NCBI RefSeq assembly: GCF_000188055.2
Contig: NZ_AEUZ02000001.1
Coordinates: forward strand, 510,001 to 574,000
DNA: 64,000 nucleotides
Direction: 5' to 3'
Source of the DNA: Streptococcus urinalis 2285-97
GTDB lineage: Bacteria; Bacillota; Bacilli; Lactobacillales; Streptococcaceae
Under the pieces are notes generated by a model. That model was not told the DNA's origin and searched no databases. It saw only the letters and a list, made by a program, of their open reading frames with translations. This document shows positions 4,034 to 13,991 of this stretch, piece by piece (within the stretch, counting starts at the first letter, position 1; each line of letters begins with the position of its first letter). A program made the translations under genes and the position numbers.

Positions 4034-4065
4034 ATAACCGTTCGTGATAATAAAATAACCATTGA
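4034..4065 (+). promoter_or_regulatory. Pair of direct repeats, likely LytTR regulator binding site
   Basis: Two imperfect direct repeats, ATAACCGTTCG (4034) and ATAACCATTGA (4055), start exactly 21 bp apart, two helical turns. LytTR-type regulators (ComE, BlpR, SilA families) bind pairs of about 9-bp repeats with this period just upstream of -35. It lies 60-90 bp before the LytTR-regulator-kinase genes. A related pair with the same period precedes the exporter gene at 9032-9063. Confidence 0.6.
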
Positions 4066-4124
4066 TGATGTTTTAGCAGTTCTTGATTATCTTACTTGCT
4101 AAAATAAATGAAAAAGGAGACTGC

Positions 4125-4454
4125 ATGAAGTATTTTATTGTCGAAAAAAATAACCAACTCTATCACATCAATCAACACGATGTCTACTATGTTTATACTA
4201 AAAATGATGCACCTCATTTGGTTTTTTATTGCACTGAAGATGGTGAATTTTATAATAGAACCACATTAAAAGCACTTCTTGAACAAAAAAGTTATCTTTT
4301 TAAGAGATGTCATCGAAGTGTCATTATTAATTTAGAAAAAGTAAAGTCATTAGATCCTCAGAAAAGGTTGATTTCATTCAGTCGTAGTATCCAAAGCGTT
4401 GTGGCTTCGAGACGTTATTTTAAGACTATTTTGGAAGAATTCAAGGCAGGTTAA
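4125..4454 (+). CDS. Stand-alone LytTR DNA-binding protein
   Basis: A 109-aa protein consisting only of a LytTR DNA-binding domain (NQHDVYYVYTKNDAPHLVF to CHRSVIINLEKVKSLD). It has no receiver domain. The start at 4125 follows AAAAGGAGA; an in-frame ATG at 4083 lacks a ribosome site. The response-regulator gene begins five bases after its stop, so the two are co-transcribed. It could assist or antagonise the full regulator at the 21-bp repeats (inference). It resembles the LytTR half of the next gene. Confidence 0.75.
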   Translation: MKYFIVEKNNQLYHINQHDVYYVYTKNDAPHLVFYCTEDGEFYNRTTLKALLEQKSYLFKRCHRSVIINLEKVKSLDPQKRLISFSRSIQSVVASRRYFKTILEEFKAG

Positions 4455-4459
4455 TTGAA

Positions 4460-5207
4460 ATGTTTAATATTTTTGTATTAGAGGATAACTTTCTTCAGCA
4501 AACCAGATTAGAAGAATTACTTTTATCTATTGCCAAAGAAAAAGCAATTACTTATAAATCATTATCACTGTTTGGGAAACCCCAAAGCCTAATTGAAGCA
4601 ATAAAAGAAAAAGGATCTCATCAACTCTTTTTTTTTAGATATTGAGATAAAAGATGAAGCTATGAAGGGATTGGAAGTTGCTAAGTTTATAAGACAAAAA
4701 GACCCTCATGCTATTATTATTTTTGTGACAACACATTCTGAATTTATGCCCTTAACATTTCAATACCAAGTTTCTGCTTTAGATTTTATTGATAAGACTG
4801 GGTCAGATAAAGAGATAAAAGCTCGTCTTGAGGCAGCCATTGATTATGCTCAGGATAAATTAGATTACCCTGAGCAAGACAGTTTTTTGTATAAGTCAAA
4901 TCACACTCAAGTTCAAGTGCCTTTTAAAGATATTTTGTTCTTTGAAACGTCACCCAGCGTTCATAAAGTGATTTTGTATACTGAAAGAGATCGTGTGGAA
5001 TTTTATGCTAAAATTTCAGAAATAGCAAAGTTAGATAAACGTTTGTTTCAATGTCATCGCTCATTTGTACTAAATCCTGCAAAGATTGTTAGGATTGATA
5101 AGGAAAATAGGATAGCATACTTTAGAGATGGTTCATTTTGTTTGGTTTCTAGAATGAAAATGAAAGGTTTAATCGAAGTTATGGAAAAACTTCAGTGTAG
5201 ACATTAG
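4460..5207 (+). pseudogene. LytTR response regulator of ComE/BlpR/SilA type, frameshifted
   Basis: A receiver plus LytTR regulator of about 248 aa split by one frameshift. The first part (4460-4645) has the acidic pocket (FVLEDN) and ends after HQLFFF. The second continues from about 4637 with the phosphoacceptor region LDIEIKDEAMKGLEVAKFIR, receiver motif FVTTHSEF, and the LytTR domain (FLYKSNHTQVQVPFKDILFFETS to CHRSFVLNPAKI). A run of nine T at 4628-4636 causes the shift; eight T would give LFFLDIEIKDE with the phosphorylated Asp. It would activate pheromone-dependent promoters. It may be restored by slippage or be a read error. Confidence 0.8.
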
Positions 5208-5209
5208 AA

Positions 5210-6581
5210 ATGAGAAACATGAATTTATTATTTTGGCAAATCGGTATCGTATTATTATTTGAAATGATAGATATTTTTTTACTACTTTGTTTTTTTAACT
5301 TTGTTAGTGATTCTAGACTACCTAGACGACAAATAGTGATACTTTCAGCTATTATTTGCGTTTGTAAAGCTATTATTAGTATTATTTCTGTCAATTTTTT
5401 ACATTTGGATATTACCTTTATCTTTTTAATTTTTTTCTTTCTCAGTTTACCAATGATCTTAGATCATTATTCTGGATTAAGCATAAAACTCTTTTTTGGT
5501 ATTTTTTCAATGGTAGTTGTCAATATTTTTTTGAGATTTATGACTTTTTTTATTTGCCCACTTTTTAATATTGATACAAAAGAAGTAAATAACAATTATT
5601 TAAGTCTTTACTTTTTTGATTATCTTAGTATTATAGTTAGCTTTTATTTTGTCAAATTATTTAGCTATGATTTTAACAGTTGGAAAGTAAACCTAGATAG
5701 TAAAGTGGGTAAGTTATTATTAAATACCATAAATATTTCAATGATTATCTATTTTGTCATTATTCAACTTTTGACAATGGTTCAATTTTCAAATATTAAT
5801 ATTGATACGAGTAATCCTAGAAAAATAATAGTTCTTTTTTATTTATTTTTATTTTTTTCCTTACTTGCTATTATAGATCGAAATGTTAAAAATAATTTAT
5901 ATCAAGAAATACTAAGTCAAAAAGAAAAACAGTTAATTGATTTATCTAATTATAGTCGACAAATTGAAAAAATTATATAATGACATTCGAAGTTTTAGAC
6001 ATGATTACGCTAATATTCTAACTAGTTTAAAGATCGGGATTGATTCACAGGATATTGAGGTCATATCTACTATTTATGAAACAGTTCTTAAAGACTCAAA
6101 TAAAAGTTTAAATAAAGGGAATTTTTCATTGGGGTGACTATCAAATTTAAATAATGATGCTATAAAAAGCATGCTTCCTGCAAAAGTCTTAGAAGCTCAA
6201 AACCTTTGTTTAAAAGTAAATGTTGAAATTCCCAAACCAATTGATTTAAGACATATTGATACTTTAGATTTTATTCGGATTATGACGATTCTATTAGACA
6301 ATGCTATCGAAGCTGCTATTGAATCTCGTGACAAAGAAGTCTCATTAGCATTTCTTGATGAAAAAGATAAAGTGGTTATTGTCATAAAAAATACCACAAA
6401 GCAAAAAAGAGTAAGTTATCAAAATATCTTTAATAAAGGTATTTCATCAAAAGGTTATGGTAGAGGTATCGGTTTATCCAGTGTCAGTGAAATTTTGGAT
6501 CGCTATAGTTATATTACGATAACAACAACGTCTTACAACTTTTCATTTACACAAATAATAGAAATAAAAAAACTAGGATAA
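5210..6581 (+). pseudogene. HPK10 pheromone-sensing histidine kinase (ComD/BlpH/SilB type), broken twice
   Basis: The N-terminal 250 residues form six to seven hydrophobic segments, as in peptide-pheromone sensors, followed by a coiled stretch (LYQEILSQKEKQLIDL). The catalytic part is intact in sequence: H-box FRHDYANIL, N-box LLDNAIEAAIE and G-box GYGRGIGLSS. Two lesions separate them. A run of six A at 5967-5972 (five expected) shifts the frame just before the H-box. An in-frame TGA at 6135-6137 stands where relatives have Arg in LGRLSN, a probable CGA to TGA change. The second lesion is not a run-length change, so this gene looks truly inactive. It follows the regulator by two bases. Confidence 0.82.
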
Positions 6582-6594
6582 TTCCTAGTTTTTT
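6567..6594. terminator. Bidirectional terminator between kinase and pheromone genes
   Basis: AAACTAGGA pairs with TCCTAGTTT across a short loop, flanked by A on the left and T on the right. It can end the kinase operon on the plus strand and the pheromone transcript on the minus strand. Confidence 0.75.
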
Positions 6595-6595
6595 A

Positions 6596-6721
6596 CTAAA
6601 CACGTCTTAGTATAACAAATCTTTCTGCGACACCTTTTAAGAAACGTAAACTACCGTTAATTTGAGTCATTTCTTCTTTAGTTAGTACTTTATACTGTTT
6701 GACTGATTTATTATTGTTCAT
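6596..6721 (-). CDS. ComC/SilCR-like 41-aa prepheromone
   Basis: A small gene on the minus strand, convergent with the kinase. It has a start ATG at 6719-6721, AAAGGGG eight to ten bases upstream, and a stop TAG at 6596-6598. The leader is 24 residues beginning MNNNKSVKQYKVL, with TKEEMTQINGS matching the double-glycine processing consensus except that the last residue is Ser. The mature peptide would be LRFLKGVAERFVILRRV, 17 residues with net charge about +4 and amphipathic. The 24+17 architecture is identical to ComC and SilCR precursors, and the MNN(N/K)K opening resembles SilCR. It lies between the kinase and the C39 exporter, as expected for the cognate pheromone. Gly-Ser instead of Gly-Gly may slow cleavage. 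Confidence 0.8.
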   Translation of the reverse strand: MNNNKSVKQYKVLTKEEMTQINGSLRFLKGVAERFVILRRV

Positions 6722-6825
6722 AAGACACACCCCTTTGTTTTAATAACTGTATTGTAATCTTTTTTGTTCTCAAAAGGTTAGGATGTCATAAATGGTAATA
6801 ATTTAGTAGTAAATAGTCATAAAAA

Positions 6826-8971
6826 TTACGTATTTAAGGTATACAACTGACTGTAAACGCCTTTTTGCGATAGGAGTTCTTGATGATTACCATACTCAAC
6901 GATCTTACCTTTATCAAGCACTAAAATACAGTCTGTTTTCTTAGCAACAGATAGCCTGTGTGCAATAAAAATGATGGTTTTATCTTGAATAGACATGAGG
7001 TTTTGAATCACACTATTTTCAGTTTTTAAGTCAAGTGCACTCGTAGCCTCGTCCAAAATAATTATTGGTGATTGCCTTAGTAATGCGCGTGCTATTGCAA
7101 GTCGTTGTTTTTGTCCTCCAGATAAACCTGATGTATTGGAAATATGGGTATCAAATCCGAAAATCATTTGATTGATATCTTCCATTATATTAACTGTTTG
7201 GCAAACATCAATTAGTTCTTGGTCGGTCACCTCTTGAGAAAGTCCCAAGGTTAGGTTTGAACGTATGGTTCCCTCAAAAAGAAATGATTCTTGTGGAATA
7301 TAGCTTATCATAGACCGTAAAAGAGTTGGATTGATCGTGTCAATATTGGTTTGATTAATTTTTATGATACCTTGTTGAGGTTTTATGAAAGAAACGAGTA
7401 ATTTAGCAACTGTTGATTTTCCCGAACCAGAACTCCCTAATACCGTTATTTTTTGACCAAATGGTATTTTTAAATTGAGCTTTTCTATTGCATTTTGTGG
7501 ATATTGGTATTGATAGCTGACGTTTTGAAGCGTAATCTCAGGATCCTTTTGAGAAAATTTTTGAGAAAGCTGTTGATTTTCAGTTTTTAAGTACAAAACA
7601 TCATTTAAGCGAGAAGTTGCAACTTTTGCTTTTTGAATTTTTTCTTGAAGATTAATAATATTTTCAAGAGGATTCAAAAAAAGATCAGTAGCATATTAAA
7701 AGTAATAAGTTGTCCAATGGATAACCTTCCTTCTTCAATCATGGAAGCGCCAAACCATAAAATTACTATGGATAAAAATAATTGAGTCAGCTGTTTTAGG
7801 GCATTTTGAAGAAAATGTAATTTGGAAAGTTGAAATGATTCTCGCAAATAATCATTTAGTTCTAGCTTTATTTTTTCTTTGAAAAACAGTTCTTCACATA
7901 GTGATTTGATGGTTTCTATACCATTAATTGAATCAATCAGAGTAGCATTTAGTTTGGTGTTTTTTGCCATAATCTGTTGATTTTTTTCTCAAAAAGAGGG
8001 ATAAACAATAAGATAAAAAAACAGTAAAAAGGAATTGATAAACAGACAAAAATAAATAAATGGGGACTTTGGCCTATCAAATAAAGTCCTATGAGAATAA
8101 TCATTGTCAAATCCAGGAATAGAGAAATGACAATATTTGATAAGGCCTCAATAATATGGTTAGCATCTGTGAATCTTGTTAGTACATCACCAGCTTGTCG
8201 GTTGTAGAAAAACGACATTGATAGTTTAAAAAGATGGTTGATATATTTGAATAGAATCATGAACGTTAATTTTTGACTAAATTTCTCAAGAATTAATTCT
8301 TTTTGAACATAAAGAAATTGTTGAAAAAGATAAGCAATACCAAGTGTGATAAAGACAAGAGATAAGTCGTGTACTTTTGAATTTGGGATGTACTTATCAA
8401 GTGTCTTTTGAATGACATAAGAGCTAGATAAATTAATGATTGTGATAATCATGCTAAATAAGACACCAAAAATGATTTTTGATTTTGATTTTAATAACTC
8501 TTGTAAAAATGATTTTAAGTTGGATTGAGATTTCTTTTGGTCTATAAATGTTGTTCCTGGTGTCAATAAGATTGTATTACCAGTCCATTGCTTTAGAAAT
8601 AGTTTGATATCAATCCAATGTTTTCCAAAGGCAGGATCAGGATCAGCAATCAGTAATTTGTTATTTTTTATATGATAAATTACTACAAAATGAGGCATAT
8701 TGTCGTCTCTTAAGATATGCGCGATAAATGGATAGGTAAGATCGTGAGCATTAAATAACTCTTTATCAGCTTCAATACATAAGGTATCAAAATTTAGTTG
8801 GTGGGCAGCTTCGACGATACCTAAGATATTTGTACCACACTGGTTCGTTTTAGCTAATTCTCTAAGGTAATTTAGAGAATAAGTAGTTCCATAGTATTGT
8901 GCAATAGTTGCTAATGCTGCAACACCACAATCACCAGCATCATTCTGATATATGATTGGAAAATGTTTCAA
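6826..8971 (-). pseudogene. C39-peptidase ABC exporter (ComA/BlpA/SilE type), two frameshifts
   Basis: About 715 aa in three frames. It starts at TTG 8971 with AGAAAGG eight bases upstream. An N-terminal C39 peptidase domain (catalytic Cys in NDAGDCGVAALATIAQYYG, His in MPHFVVIYH) is followed by six membrane segments and an ATPase with Walker A GSSGSGKST, signature LSGGQKQR, Walker B IIILDEA and AHR. Frame break 1 lies at 7970-7972 (one A missing in TTAATG). Break 2 lies in a run of seven T (7676-7682 on the plus strand, eight expected: IFFLNPLENI). It would export the pheromone while removing its leader. The partner accessory subunit gene was not found nearby. Confidence 0.85.
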
Positions 8972-9031
8972 TTGTTTAACCTTTCTAAGTTATACTTATT
9001 ATTTTAAGTTATATTGATTGGAGAAAATTAA

Positions 9032-9063
9032 CTGTTTATGATACTTAAGCAGCCGTTTATGAT
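9032..9063 (-). promoter_or_regulatory. Second pair of 21-bp-spaced direct repeats, exporter promoter
   Basis: Read on the minus strand, ATCATAAACGG (9063-9053) and ATCATAAACAG (9042-9032) repeat with a 21-bp period, about 60-90 bp upstream of the exporter start. They share ATAA(A/C)C(A/G) with the repeats at 4034-4065. This suggests both transcription units answer to the same LytTR regulator. The site also lies upstream of the divergent small gene at 9131. Confidence 0.55.
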
Positions 9064-9130
9064 TTAGTTCTTTAAAACTTTCCATTTACGTTAAACTTCT
9101 AAAAATAAAGAGTTTATAGAGAGCTTAGAA

Positions 9131-9346
9131 ATGTTTCCAAAACAATACTATAAAGAAGTGATTAGATTGCTTATTTTTTTATGCCTGTTCTACATTGTTA
9201 TGCAATTTTTATTCTTTTTGATGTGTGACTTTGAATATTTAACAAAACGATTTAGAATCATCTTTAGCTTATTTTCTGTTTATTGTTTGATAGTAAAATG
9301 TCGTCATCTTAGATTAAGAAGAAATAAAAAAAGAAGGTATGAATAA
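9131..9346 (+). CDS. Small basic membrane protein, unrecognised
   Basis: 71 aa with two hydrophobic segments (about residues 12-32 and 43-55) and a strongly basic tail (RHLRLRRNKKRR). A weak ribosome site (AGAG) precedes ATG at 9131. It is divergent from the C39 exporter and shares its repeat-bearing upstream region. It could be an immunity or accessory protein of the peptide system, but no family was recognised. It could also be a chance frame. Confidence 0.4.
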   Translation: MFPKQYYKEVIRLLIFLCLFYIVMQFLFFLMCDFEYLTKRFRIIFSLFSVYCLIVKCRHLRLRRNKKRRYE

Positions 9347-12174: not shown

Positions 12175-13296
12175 ATGCAACATTCATATTCTTTAAGATC
12201 AGTTTTCATACACAGTGGCTACCGTACACCAATAGGTGTTTTTAAAAAGCAATATTCTCACACTAGACCTGAACTACTAGGGGCAATATTTTTAAATCAA
12301 TTAAAGAATGAATTACCCAATCAAAACTTAGATGCCTTTATATGTGGCAATGCCATTGGAACTGGTGGAAATATCGGAAGGTTGTGTCTTTTGTATTCTC
12401 ATTTTGATGAGAGGATACCAGCACAAACAGTTGACCTTTAATGTGCTTCAGCAAGCGCAGCAATTGGCATAGGGTATTTAAAAATAAAAACAGGACAAGC
12501 TAATTGTGTCATTGCTGGAGGTATTGAAAGTAGTTCTCTACAACCTAAAAGGATTTATGCTGAGAATGATGAAAGATTGGGTGCCTATCAAGTTGCACAG
12601 TTTTCTCCAGATAGTGTTAGCCAATCAGTTATGATAGAAGCTGCAGAAAATATTTGTCTTGATTATTCTTTTCAAAAAAACTATTTGAATCATTATGCCT
12701 TAAAGAGTCATCAAAAAGCCGTACACGCTAAGGAGACTAAATTATTAGATGAACTTATTTTTCCAATTAAAGACTTTGAAGATCAAGGTATCAAAGATAC
12801 GTTAACGCTAAAATTATTGGACCGACTACCAGCTATTTTAGGAAAAAACAAACAAATTACAGTGGGAAATGCCTGTCTAACACATGATGGTGCTGCTTTT
12901 GTGACACTTAGTCAAAGAGAATCACCTTTTGAAATGATTGATTATACTGAGGTAGCAGGTGATCCTAAAAGGTGTCCAGAATTGGTTGTGAAAGCTACTA
13001 AAGCTATATTAGAAAGAAATGAGTTAACAATGTCTTGCATTGATGCTGTTGAATGGAATGAAGCTTTTGCTGTTACTGATGCTTTATTTGATTATTATTT
13101 TTCTGGTTTTAGAGACATTTACAATATTTTTGGAGGAGCATTAGCTTATGGACATCCTTATGGTGCTTCAGGAGCCATCAATTTATTACATCTGATGCAA
13201 GCACTAAAATTAAAAAAAGGAAAATTAGGAGTTACCGCAATAGCTGCTGCTGGAGGTGTTGCTATAGCAATATTAGTTTCTTATAAAGGAGAATAA
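12175..13296 (+). pseudogene. Thiolase (acetyl-CoA acetyltransferase-like) with nonsense codon at the active site
   Basis: A thiolase-fold protein of 373 codons in one frame, interrupted by TAA at 12439-12441 immediately before the nucleophile Cys in CASASAAIGIGYLKI. A CAA to TAA change would explain it. Downstream motifs NEAFAVTDALF and GGALAYGHPYGASGA match thiolases. The usual C-terminal catalytic Cys of CxGGG is absent (AIAAAGGVAIAIL), so the ancestor may not have been a standard thiolase. It is followed after one base by an AMP-ligase remnant. The pair resembles a vraB/vraA-like acyl-CoA unit. No function is expected as it stands. Confidence 0.85.
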
Positions 13297-13297
13297 A

Positions 13298-13991
13298 GTG
13301 ATTAATAAGCTTAAAGAATGGGTATCTATTTTTCCAGATAAAATTGCCATCACCTATCAAGATCAAACTATAACCTATGGTGAATTGTTTAATCAGATTT
13401 CAGAGACTGAAAAACAAAATCCAATTATTTTTGAAAAAAATCCTATGCAACAATTGATTTGCTTTTTAAGAGGACTTTATCAGGAAGTCTGTCCTATCTT
13501 ATGTCATCCTTCTTTAGAAGCTACTGATATTGTGAAAAACCAATTACAATGTCAATCTAGACCTGAAATTGCGGATTTTGGCATACTAACATCAGGAACG
13601 TCATATCATGCAAGGATCATTTGGAGAACTTTAGGATCATGGAAAGATTTTTTTGAAGAGCAAGCTAGGAAATTTAAATTGACTGCTGATAGTCATTTAT
13701 TTTGCTTAGGATCACTAAGTTTTTCAGGAAATTTGAATATGGCATTATGTCAGTTGTTTCTGTGTAAAGGATGCCTATGCTTTAAAAACCAATGATCAGA
13801 CTAAAGAGACTTATGATTTAATAATTACTTTGAAAGAAAAAAATGAGCTAGATAAAGTAATGAAAAAAGTTAGAAAGTCTTCATTTCTACAACCCAAACA
13901 GATACATTTGTTAGATGAAATACCACGAAATGATTCAGGCAAAATTGCTATTAATAAGCTTAGACAGATTATTTTAAGTCAGGATGTTTAA
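13298..13991 (+). pseudogene. Acyl-CoA ligase (AMP-forming), internally deleted
   Basis: The N terminus (WVSIFPDKIAITYQDQTITYGELF) and the ligase core (FGILTSGTSYHARIIWRT, the damaged P-loop region) read to stop at 13795. The C-terminal domain continues in another frame (about 13770-13991) with IPRNDSGKIAINKL, the conserved region holding the catalytic Lys. About 200 residues expected between SGNLNMALCQL and KDAYALK are missing. This is a deletion with a frame change, not a run-length error. It starts one base after the thiolase and was presumably in its operon. Confidence 0.8.

What the first reader, a model, noticed from the sequence alone, without database searches (positions are those of the whole stretch)
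6596..6721. Overlooked SilCR/ComC-like prepheromone gene with a Gly-Ser processing site
A 41-codon minus-strand gene has a proper ribosome site, a 24-residue leader of the double-glycine type and a basic 17-residue peptide LRFLKGVAERFVILRRV. The 24+17 length equals ComC and SilCR. The position between a HPK10 kinase and a C39 exporter fits a cognate signal. The leader ends NGS instead of NGG. The mature sequence matches no pheromone I can name, so it could be a new pherotype.
Basis: partly seen in the sequence, partly recalled or inferred. Interest (0 to 1): 0.85.

Follow-up and report, generated by a model that had tools for sequence, protein, structure and literature searches.

The report
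Bacterial signal gene in decayed locus
This small gene is very probably a real precursor of a chemical signal of a well-known streptococcal type, but the regulator, receptor and exporter genes around it are broken, so it is most likely a leftover of a dead signalling system rather than a working new signal.

Summary
The 41-codon minus-strand ORF at 6596-6721 is real and very probably a prepheromone gene. Its leader resembles leaders of prepheromones beside HPK10 kinases (best match: 0 of 20,000 shuffles as good). It is convergent with the kinase and has a LytTR-type direct repeat (period 21) ending 65 nt before its ATG; 10 of 11 hand-picked relatives have the same. The layout (LytTR-only protein, regulator, kinase, convergent peptide, exporter) is that of blp/sil, not comCDE. 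The 17-mer resembles none of five published pheromones tested. (1) The one database relative reads NGG where this strain reads NGS: Gly-Ser is an allele. (2) The partners are broken: regulator (one frameshift), kinase (one frameshift, one stop), exporter (two frameshifts). No accessory protein was found, and the broken exporter holds the genome's only C39 match. Regulator and kinase breaks recur in another assembly. Best reading: a new pherotype sequence left in a dead blp/sil locus; such decay has precedents. Organism unnamed; low G+C suggests Streptococcus urinalis (inference).

The parts
6596..6721 (-). prepheromone ORF, 41 aa; leader codons 6650-6721, 17-residue part 6599-6649, stop 6596-6598
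6730..6736 (-). ribosome-binding site AAAGGGG, 8 nt before the ATG
   Evidence: sequence
6787..6817 (-). LytTR-type direct repeat, period 21, upstream of the prepheromone gene
6567..6594 (.). terminator-like palindrome between the tails of the kinase and the prepheromone gene
   Evidence: 2 such sites found in the region against 1.5 expected in shuffles, so the count itself is no evidence
4037..4067 (+). LytTR-type direct repeat before the LytTR-only gene
4125..4454 (+). LytTR-only protein, 109 aa, open frame, in the blpS position
4460..5207 (+). response regulator, broken: frameshift near 4630
   Evidence: same 181-aa fragment stored from 17 contigs
5210..6581 (+). HPK10-type kinase, broken: frameshift near 5961-5974 and in-frame stop at 6135-6137
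   Evidence: same 253-aa fragment stored from 7 contigs
6826..8971 (-). C39 peptidase ABC exporter, broken: frameshifts near 7983 and near 7680-7695
9031..9061 (+). LytTR-type direct repeat before the 71-aa ORF
9131..9346 (+). 71-aa ORF of unknown kind behind the third repeat; possibly a small membrane or immunity-like protein (inference)
   Evidence: no family, no relative

Best explanation
The ORF is the prepheromone gene (silCR/blpC position) of a Sil/Blp-type quorum-sensing locus. In a working locus the 41-aa precursor would be cut after its double glycine by the neighbouring C39 exporter, the 17-mer would be sensed by the HPK10 kinase, and the LytTR regulator would bind the 21-bp-period repeats and switch on the prepheromone and other genes (inferred from homologous systems, not shown here). 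In this genome regulator, kinase and exporter are broken and no accessory protein was found, so the precursor can neither leave the cell by this route nor be sensed. The gene is an open-frame relic with a new pherotype sequence; its Gly-Ser site is most likely a derived allele that arose under relaxed selection (inferred).
For: Leader homology: 10 of 22 identities to the L021/L029 leaders, 0 of 20,000 shuffles as good; 11 of 14 leaders had at most 24 of 20,000. Top hits of the NGG allele in 284 genomes after the own one are kinase-adjacent prepheromones of G075 and G079. Convergent GG peptide downstream of the kinase in 14 of 26 intact-kinase loci and in 11 of 11 hand-picked wider regions. Direct repeat 65 nt before the ATG, 63-70 nt in 10 of 11 relatives; 3 of the genome's 6 repeat matches lie in this locus, reversed-pattern control 1. 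Breaks located in regulator, kinase and exporter; the only PF03412 match of the genome is the broken exporter; no TIGR01000; no PF10439 bacteriocin over cut-off. Regulator and kinase fragments stored with the same ends from 17 and 7 contigs, longest about 2.144 Mb, not this 2,130,431-base assembly. No intact regulator of this kind among the 120 of 879 hits listed, next best 59% identical.
Against: The prepheromone frame, ribosome site, repeat and the LytTR-only gene are still intact, which a long-dead locus need not keep. Gly-Ser is named in reviews as a rarer accepted processing motif (PMC7595303, PMC7018657, PMC9638458), so the allele alone does not show inactivity. An intact kinase allele (about 453 aa) would have been outside the 448-aa limit, and the exporter was not searched in other strains, so intact alleles elsewhere are not excluded. 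Two other full-length LytTR regulators exist in the genome. 12 of 26 loci showed no convergent peptide by my pattern, and three of 14 leaders did not stand out. That Gly-Gly is ancestral rests on one relative and on outgroups.
Confidence: 0.85

Rival explanations
1. A working new pheromone with a Gly-Ser processing site; the breaks in its partners are sequencing errors or switch on and off at homopolymers.
For: Frame, ribosome site and repeat are intact. The regulator break is at a T tract, a place prone to errors and slippage. Gly-Ser is a known rarer motif (PMC7595303).
Against: Five lesions in three genes. The regulator and kinase fragments recur with the same ends in another assembly. No accessory protein found and no second C39 peptidase. 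The only relative has Gly-Gly.
Confidence: 0.06
2. The partners are lost but the remnant still works in part: the LytTR-only protein or another LytTR regulator uses the three repeats to control the prepheromone ORF and the 71-aa ORF, for example to keep protection against relatives' bacteriocins.
For: The LytTR-only gene and three repeats are intact; two other full-length LytTR regulators exist; a review notes that strains with incomplete sil can still make immunity proteins (PMC8308785, passage).
Against: The 71-aa ORF has no relative in the 11 regions beyond one E = 0.26 match and no family. The same review passage requires an intact SilAB, which is broken here.
Confidence: 0.06
3. A small bacteriocin precursor or a chance ORF rather than a prepheromone.
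For: It is short and basic; TIGR01847 also covers bacteriocin leaders; the loose leader pattern is no rarer than chance.
Against: Position, orientation, repeat spacing and leader match kinase-adjacent prepheromones; no bacteriocin family model reaches its cut-off; another allele differs at the site residue only.
Confidence: 0.03

Closest known systems
blp locus (blpSRH, blpC, blpAB), BlpC prepheromone
   Same: Order and orientation: LytTR-only protein, regulator, kinase, convergent prepheromone, C39 exporter (PMC9638458 passages); 24-residue leader with L13, E17 and G23; direct-repeat promoters.
   Different: Y10, M18 and S24 in place of F10, L18 and G24; new 17-mer; regulator, kinase and exporter broken; no accessory protein or bacteriocin family found.
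sil locus (silAB, silCR, silDE) of S. pyogenes, S. dysgalactiae and the anginosus group
   Same: Same gene order and two 10-bp repeats separated by 11 bp (PMC2766830, PMC5222867); comparators L012/L013 carry exactly the published SilCR SAG-B sequence.
   Different: 17-mer unrelated to SilCR SAG-A and SAG-B; the S. pyogenes SilCR was not compared; no silE-like gene found.
comCDE, ComC/CSP
   Same: 17-residue basic peptide, as CSP1 and CSP2 are (PMC9346555).
   Different: Gene order and orientation differ (PMC9638458); similarity to CSP1 and CSP2 is not beyond shuffles.
Intact BlpC beside broken BlpH and BlpR in S. infantarius CJ18
   Same: The peptide gene outlives its receptor and regulator (PMC9638458 section 7).
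   Different: There the authors could not exclude sequencing artefacts and saw no conserved lesions; here regulator and kinase lesions recur in another assembly.

Membership tests
BlpRH/BlpC (sil-type) locus | Kinase gene directly downstream of regulator gene | tested here: met
   As remnants
BlpRH/BlpC (sil-type) locus | Prepheromone gene downstream of the kinase gene in opposite orientation | tested here: met
   definition PMC9638458
BlpRH/BlpC (sil-type) locus | BlpS-like LytTR-only gene upstream of the regulator (only in some species) | tested here: met
   (PF04397); 7 of 11 comparators have one
BlpRH/BlpC (sil-type) locus | Leader residues F10, L13, E17, L18, G23, G24 | tested here: inconclusive
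   3 of 6 identical (L13, E17, G23), 4 of 6 in P0002; Y10 and M18 are conservative
BlpRH/BlpC (sil-type) locus | Paired repeats with period 21 upstream of the prepheromone gene | tested here: met
BlpRH/BlpC (sil-type) locus | Intact kinase, regulator and exporter (a working system) | tested here: not met
BlpRH/BlpC (sil-type) locus | Accessory protein BlpB/SilE | tested here: not met
   TIGR01000 0 matches at E <= 0.001 in the genome
BlpRH/BlpC (sil-type) locus | Peptide induces the locus | not testable with these tools
   needs experiment
comCDE | comC upstream of comD and in the same direction | tested here: not met
   the ORF is convergent with the kinase; definition PMC9638458
TIGR01847 GG-leader model | Score over the curated cut-off of 15.7 bits | tested here: not met
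   15.3 bits for the window's allele; 19.1 for P0002, which passes

The most novel reading that the evidence does not exclude
The prepheromone frame, its repeat and the LytTR-only gene are kept while receptor, regulator and exporter are lost because the remnant still does something: for example a LytTR protein bound to the three repeats keeps a small protective gene set (9131 ORF) going, or the unexported precursor acts inside the cell.
Probability: 0.05. Interest if true: 0.5.

Novelty: new member of a known kind. Interest (0 to 1): 0.27.

Why it matters
It adds one pherotype sequence that no held paper contains and an example of a blp/sil locus dead in more than one assembly, with the signal gene still open. 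It also warns against reading an intact prepheromone ORF, or an unusual processing site in one strain, as a live signal before its neighbours and other strains are checked.

Tried and rejected
Exporter piece against genome contigs: 111 pattern matches, none confirmed. The neighbouring RNA methyltransferase against genome contigs: 80 named loci kept of 97 confirmed, but it did not settle the species, since many pyogenic species are absent from the list. P0001 in 59 relatives: own hit plus seven at E 0.23-0.69, none convincing. S. parauberis was considered from assembly sizes and set aside because the window's G+C is 32.6% against 35.6-35.7% there (PMC9933689); S. urinalis at 33.79% (PMC4076318, one passage) fits better; neither was tested. 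The 17-mer against CSP1, CSP2, a S. gallolyticus pheromone and two anginosus-group SilCRs: 1554 to 2888 of 5000 shuffles as good, so no similarity. The repeat finder gave only weak families. Promoter scan: 44 sites against 34.3 (sd 6.0) in shuffles, not used as evidence. The repeat match at genome position 213085 lies between two long ORFs that look like housekeeping genes and was taken as chance; the two others outside the locus were not followed up.

Full report
Observation. The own genome (2,130,431 bases, one contig) holds it once.

Is it a prepheromone? Four lines agree. (1) Leader homology. Aligned at the processing site, the leader of the NGG allele matches the L021 and L029 leaders (identical to each other) at 10 of 22 positions, with 0 of 20,000 shuffles as good. 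Of 14 leaders compared, 11 had at most 24 of 20,000 shuffles as good and three did not stand out (L025 1122, L028 3945, L036 520). Searching 284 Streptococcus genomes with the NGG allele, 68 genomes have a match at E <= 1; after the own hit the two best are the kinase-adjacent prepheromones of G075 and G079 (E 4.2e-4 and 8.4e-4 for one genome). Uncorrected for 284 genomes these are modest; their position makes them telling. An earlier search of 59 relatives, which did not include those two, gave nothing convincing. (2) Layout. Of the 30 loci fetched with the kinase's sensor half (L009-L038; one search found a match in 171 of 284 genomes), 4 including the window's own had no intact kinase frame over the centre. 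Of the other 26, 14 had a GG-type peptide by my pattern convergent with the kinase in the roughly 0.9 kb held, and 12 did not. I then took 11 wider regions, chosen by hand, nine of them from the 14 positives: all 11 have such a convergent peptide, 8 of 11 have the C39 exporter beyond it in the same direction (not L151, L152, L159), and 7 of 11 have a LytTR-only protein before the regulator. (3) Repeat. ACCRTTYATG-N11-ACCRTTYATG with up to 3 mismatches occurs 6 times in the genome, and the reversed control pattern once; 3 of the 6 lie in this 5 kb, before the LytTR-only gene, the prepheromone gene and the 71-aa ORF. The prepheromone's repeat ends 65 nt before its ATG; in 10 of 11 relatives a repeat with at most 5 mismatches ends 63-70 nt before theirs (L153 fails, 8 mismatches), while 0 to 4 of 500 random positions per region did as well. 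(4) Leader model: TIGR01847 15.3 bits against a cut-off of 15.7, and 19.1 for the NGG allele.

The Gly-Ser site. The protein database holds one relative, P0002, identical except for Gly in place of Ser at position 24, listed with one contig of 1585 bases. All 14 convergent peptides found by a pattern that also allowed Gly-Ala and Gly-Ser have Gly-Gly. Gly-Ser is most simply a derived allele of this strain (inference). It does not prove inactivity: Gly-Ser is named as a rarer accepted motif (passages of PMC7595303 and PMC7018657; PMC9638458 section 11).

The neighbours are broken. tblastn with relatives' intact proteins places the regulator in two frames (break near 4630, at a T tract), the kinase in two frames (near 5961-5974) and the exporter in three frames (near 7983 and near 7680-7695); the kinase also has an in-frame stop at 6135-6137. 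The space between prepheromone and exporter is about 0.1 kb, against 1.44-1.49 kb in seven of the eight comparators with that order and 3.2 kb in the eighth, where an accessory gene would lie (inferred). The accessory-protein model TIGR01000 finds nothing in the genome at E <= 0.001. PF03412 finds only this broken exporter, so the rescue known from pneumococcus, where ComAB exports BlpC when BlpAB is broken (PMC7595303, PMC9638458), has no candidate here. PF14501's only strong match is this kinase (65.5 bits); four others score 22.4-26.5 bits against a cut-off of 22 and were not examined. LytTR has five places, two in this locus, two in full-length frames elsewhere and one in a 135-aa frame, so another regulator using these repeats is not excluded. 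PF10439 gives no bacteriocin over its cut-off (one match, 14.6 bits, with a stop inside; this model also exceeded its cut-off in none of the 14 control genomes, so it is a weak test).

Not an error of this assembly. The 181-aa regulator fragment is stored as a cluster of 2 sequences from 17 contigs, and the 253-aa kinase fragment as a cluster of 3 sequences from 7 contigs, both 100% identical to the window and both with a longest contig of about 2.144 Mb, which is not this assembly. For the regulator an intact allele would have been within the length limit; among the 120 of 879 hits listed the next best is 59% identical, that is, another species. For the kinase an intact allele of about 453 aa would exceed the 448-aa limit, so its absence was not tested; exporter alleles were not searched at all.

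What it is called. PMC9638458 (abstract, passages, sections 7 and 11 read) defines the blp layout as regulator, kinase, peptide gene in opposite orientation, sometimes with blpS first, and comCDE by another order. The window has the blp layout with an open LytTR-only gene in the blpS position. sil has the same layout (PMC2766830 passages; PMC5222867 Results part 1), and comparators L012/L013 carry the published SilCR SAG-B. Of the BlpC leader residues named there, L13, E17 and G23 are present, Y10 and M18 are conservative, and S24 is G24 in P0002. The 17-mer shows no similarity beyond shuffles to CSP1, CSP2 and a S. gallolyticus pheromone (PMC9346555 passages) or to two anginosus-group SilCRs, and no held paper contains it. 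So as far as tested the pherotype is new; the S. pyogenes SilCR was not compared.

How it works. Shown: the gene, its signals and the breaks. Inferred: that it was once exported, cleaved and sensed as in sil/blp, and that in this strain it is now neither exported nor sensed. Not shown: transcription, translation, or loss of function at the bench.

Precedent. Loss of function in such loci is well documented: a silCR start-codon mutation and truncated silD (PMC2766830 passages); a sil locus in 16% of clinical S. pyogenes isolates but apparently functional in only 9% (PMC8308785 passage); a blpA frameshift in about 60% of pneumococci (PMC7595303); intact BlpC beside broken BlpH and BlpR in S. infantarius CJ18 (PMC9638458 section 7). 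Hence a new member of a known kind, in a decayed state, and a low score.

Organism. The tools gave no name beyond the genus Streptococcus. The window's G+C is 32.6%; PMC4076318 (one passage) gives S. urinalis as the lowest of the genus at 33.79%, so S. urinalis is my guess, untested. 'urinalis' occurs 0 times in the main text of PMC9638458, and none of the 8 papers listed of 174 holds that species name.

Noticed in passing
window 12175-13296 and 13298-13991 (+): What look like a thiolase-like and an acyl-CoA-ligase-like gene are also split over several ORFs, so decay in this stretch may not be confined to the signalling locus.
   Followed up: no
window 4620-4640 and protein P0052: The regulator breaks at a T tract that codes for the conserved FFFLDIE-type stretch; P0052, a 198-aa relative from elsewhere, departs from its relatives just before the same stretch. 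Perhaps a recurrent slippage site.
   Followed up: partly
window 9031-9346 (+): A 71-aa ORF with hydrophobic stretches and a basic tail behind a LytTR-type repeat; no Pfam or NCBIfam match and no relative in 11 comparator regions beyond one E = 0.26 match.
   Followed up: partly
L160: One relative has two regulator-kinase pairs in tandem beside one prepheromone gene, and its exporter match is split into two pieces.
   Followed up: no
L010 (G069): The closest match to the kinase's sensor half (31% identity) also has a stop inside, so another species may carry a decayed copy.
   Followed up: no
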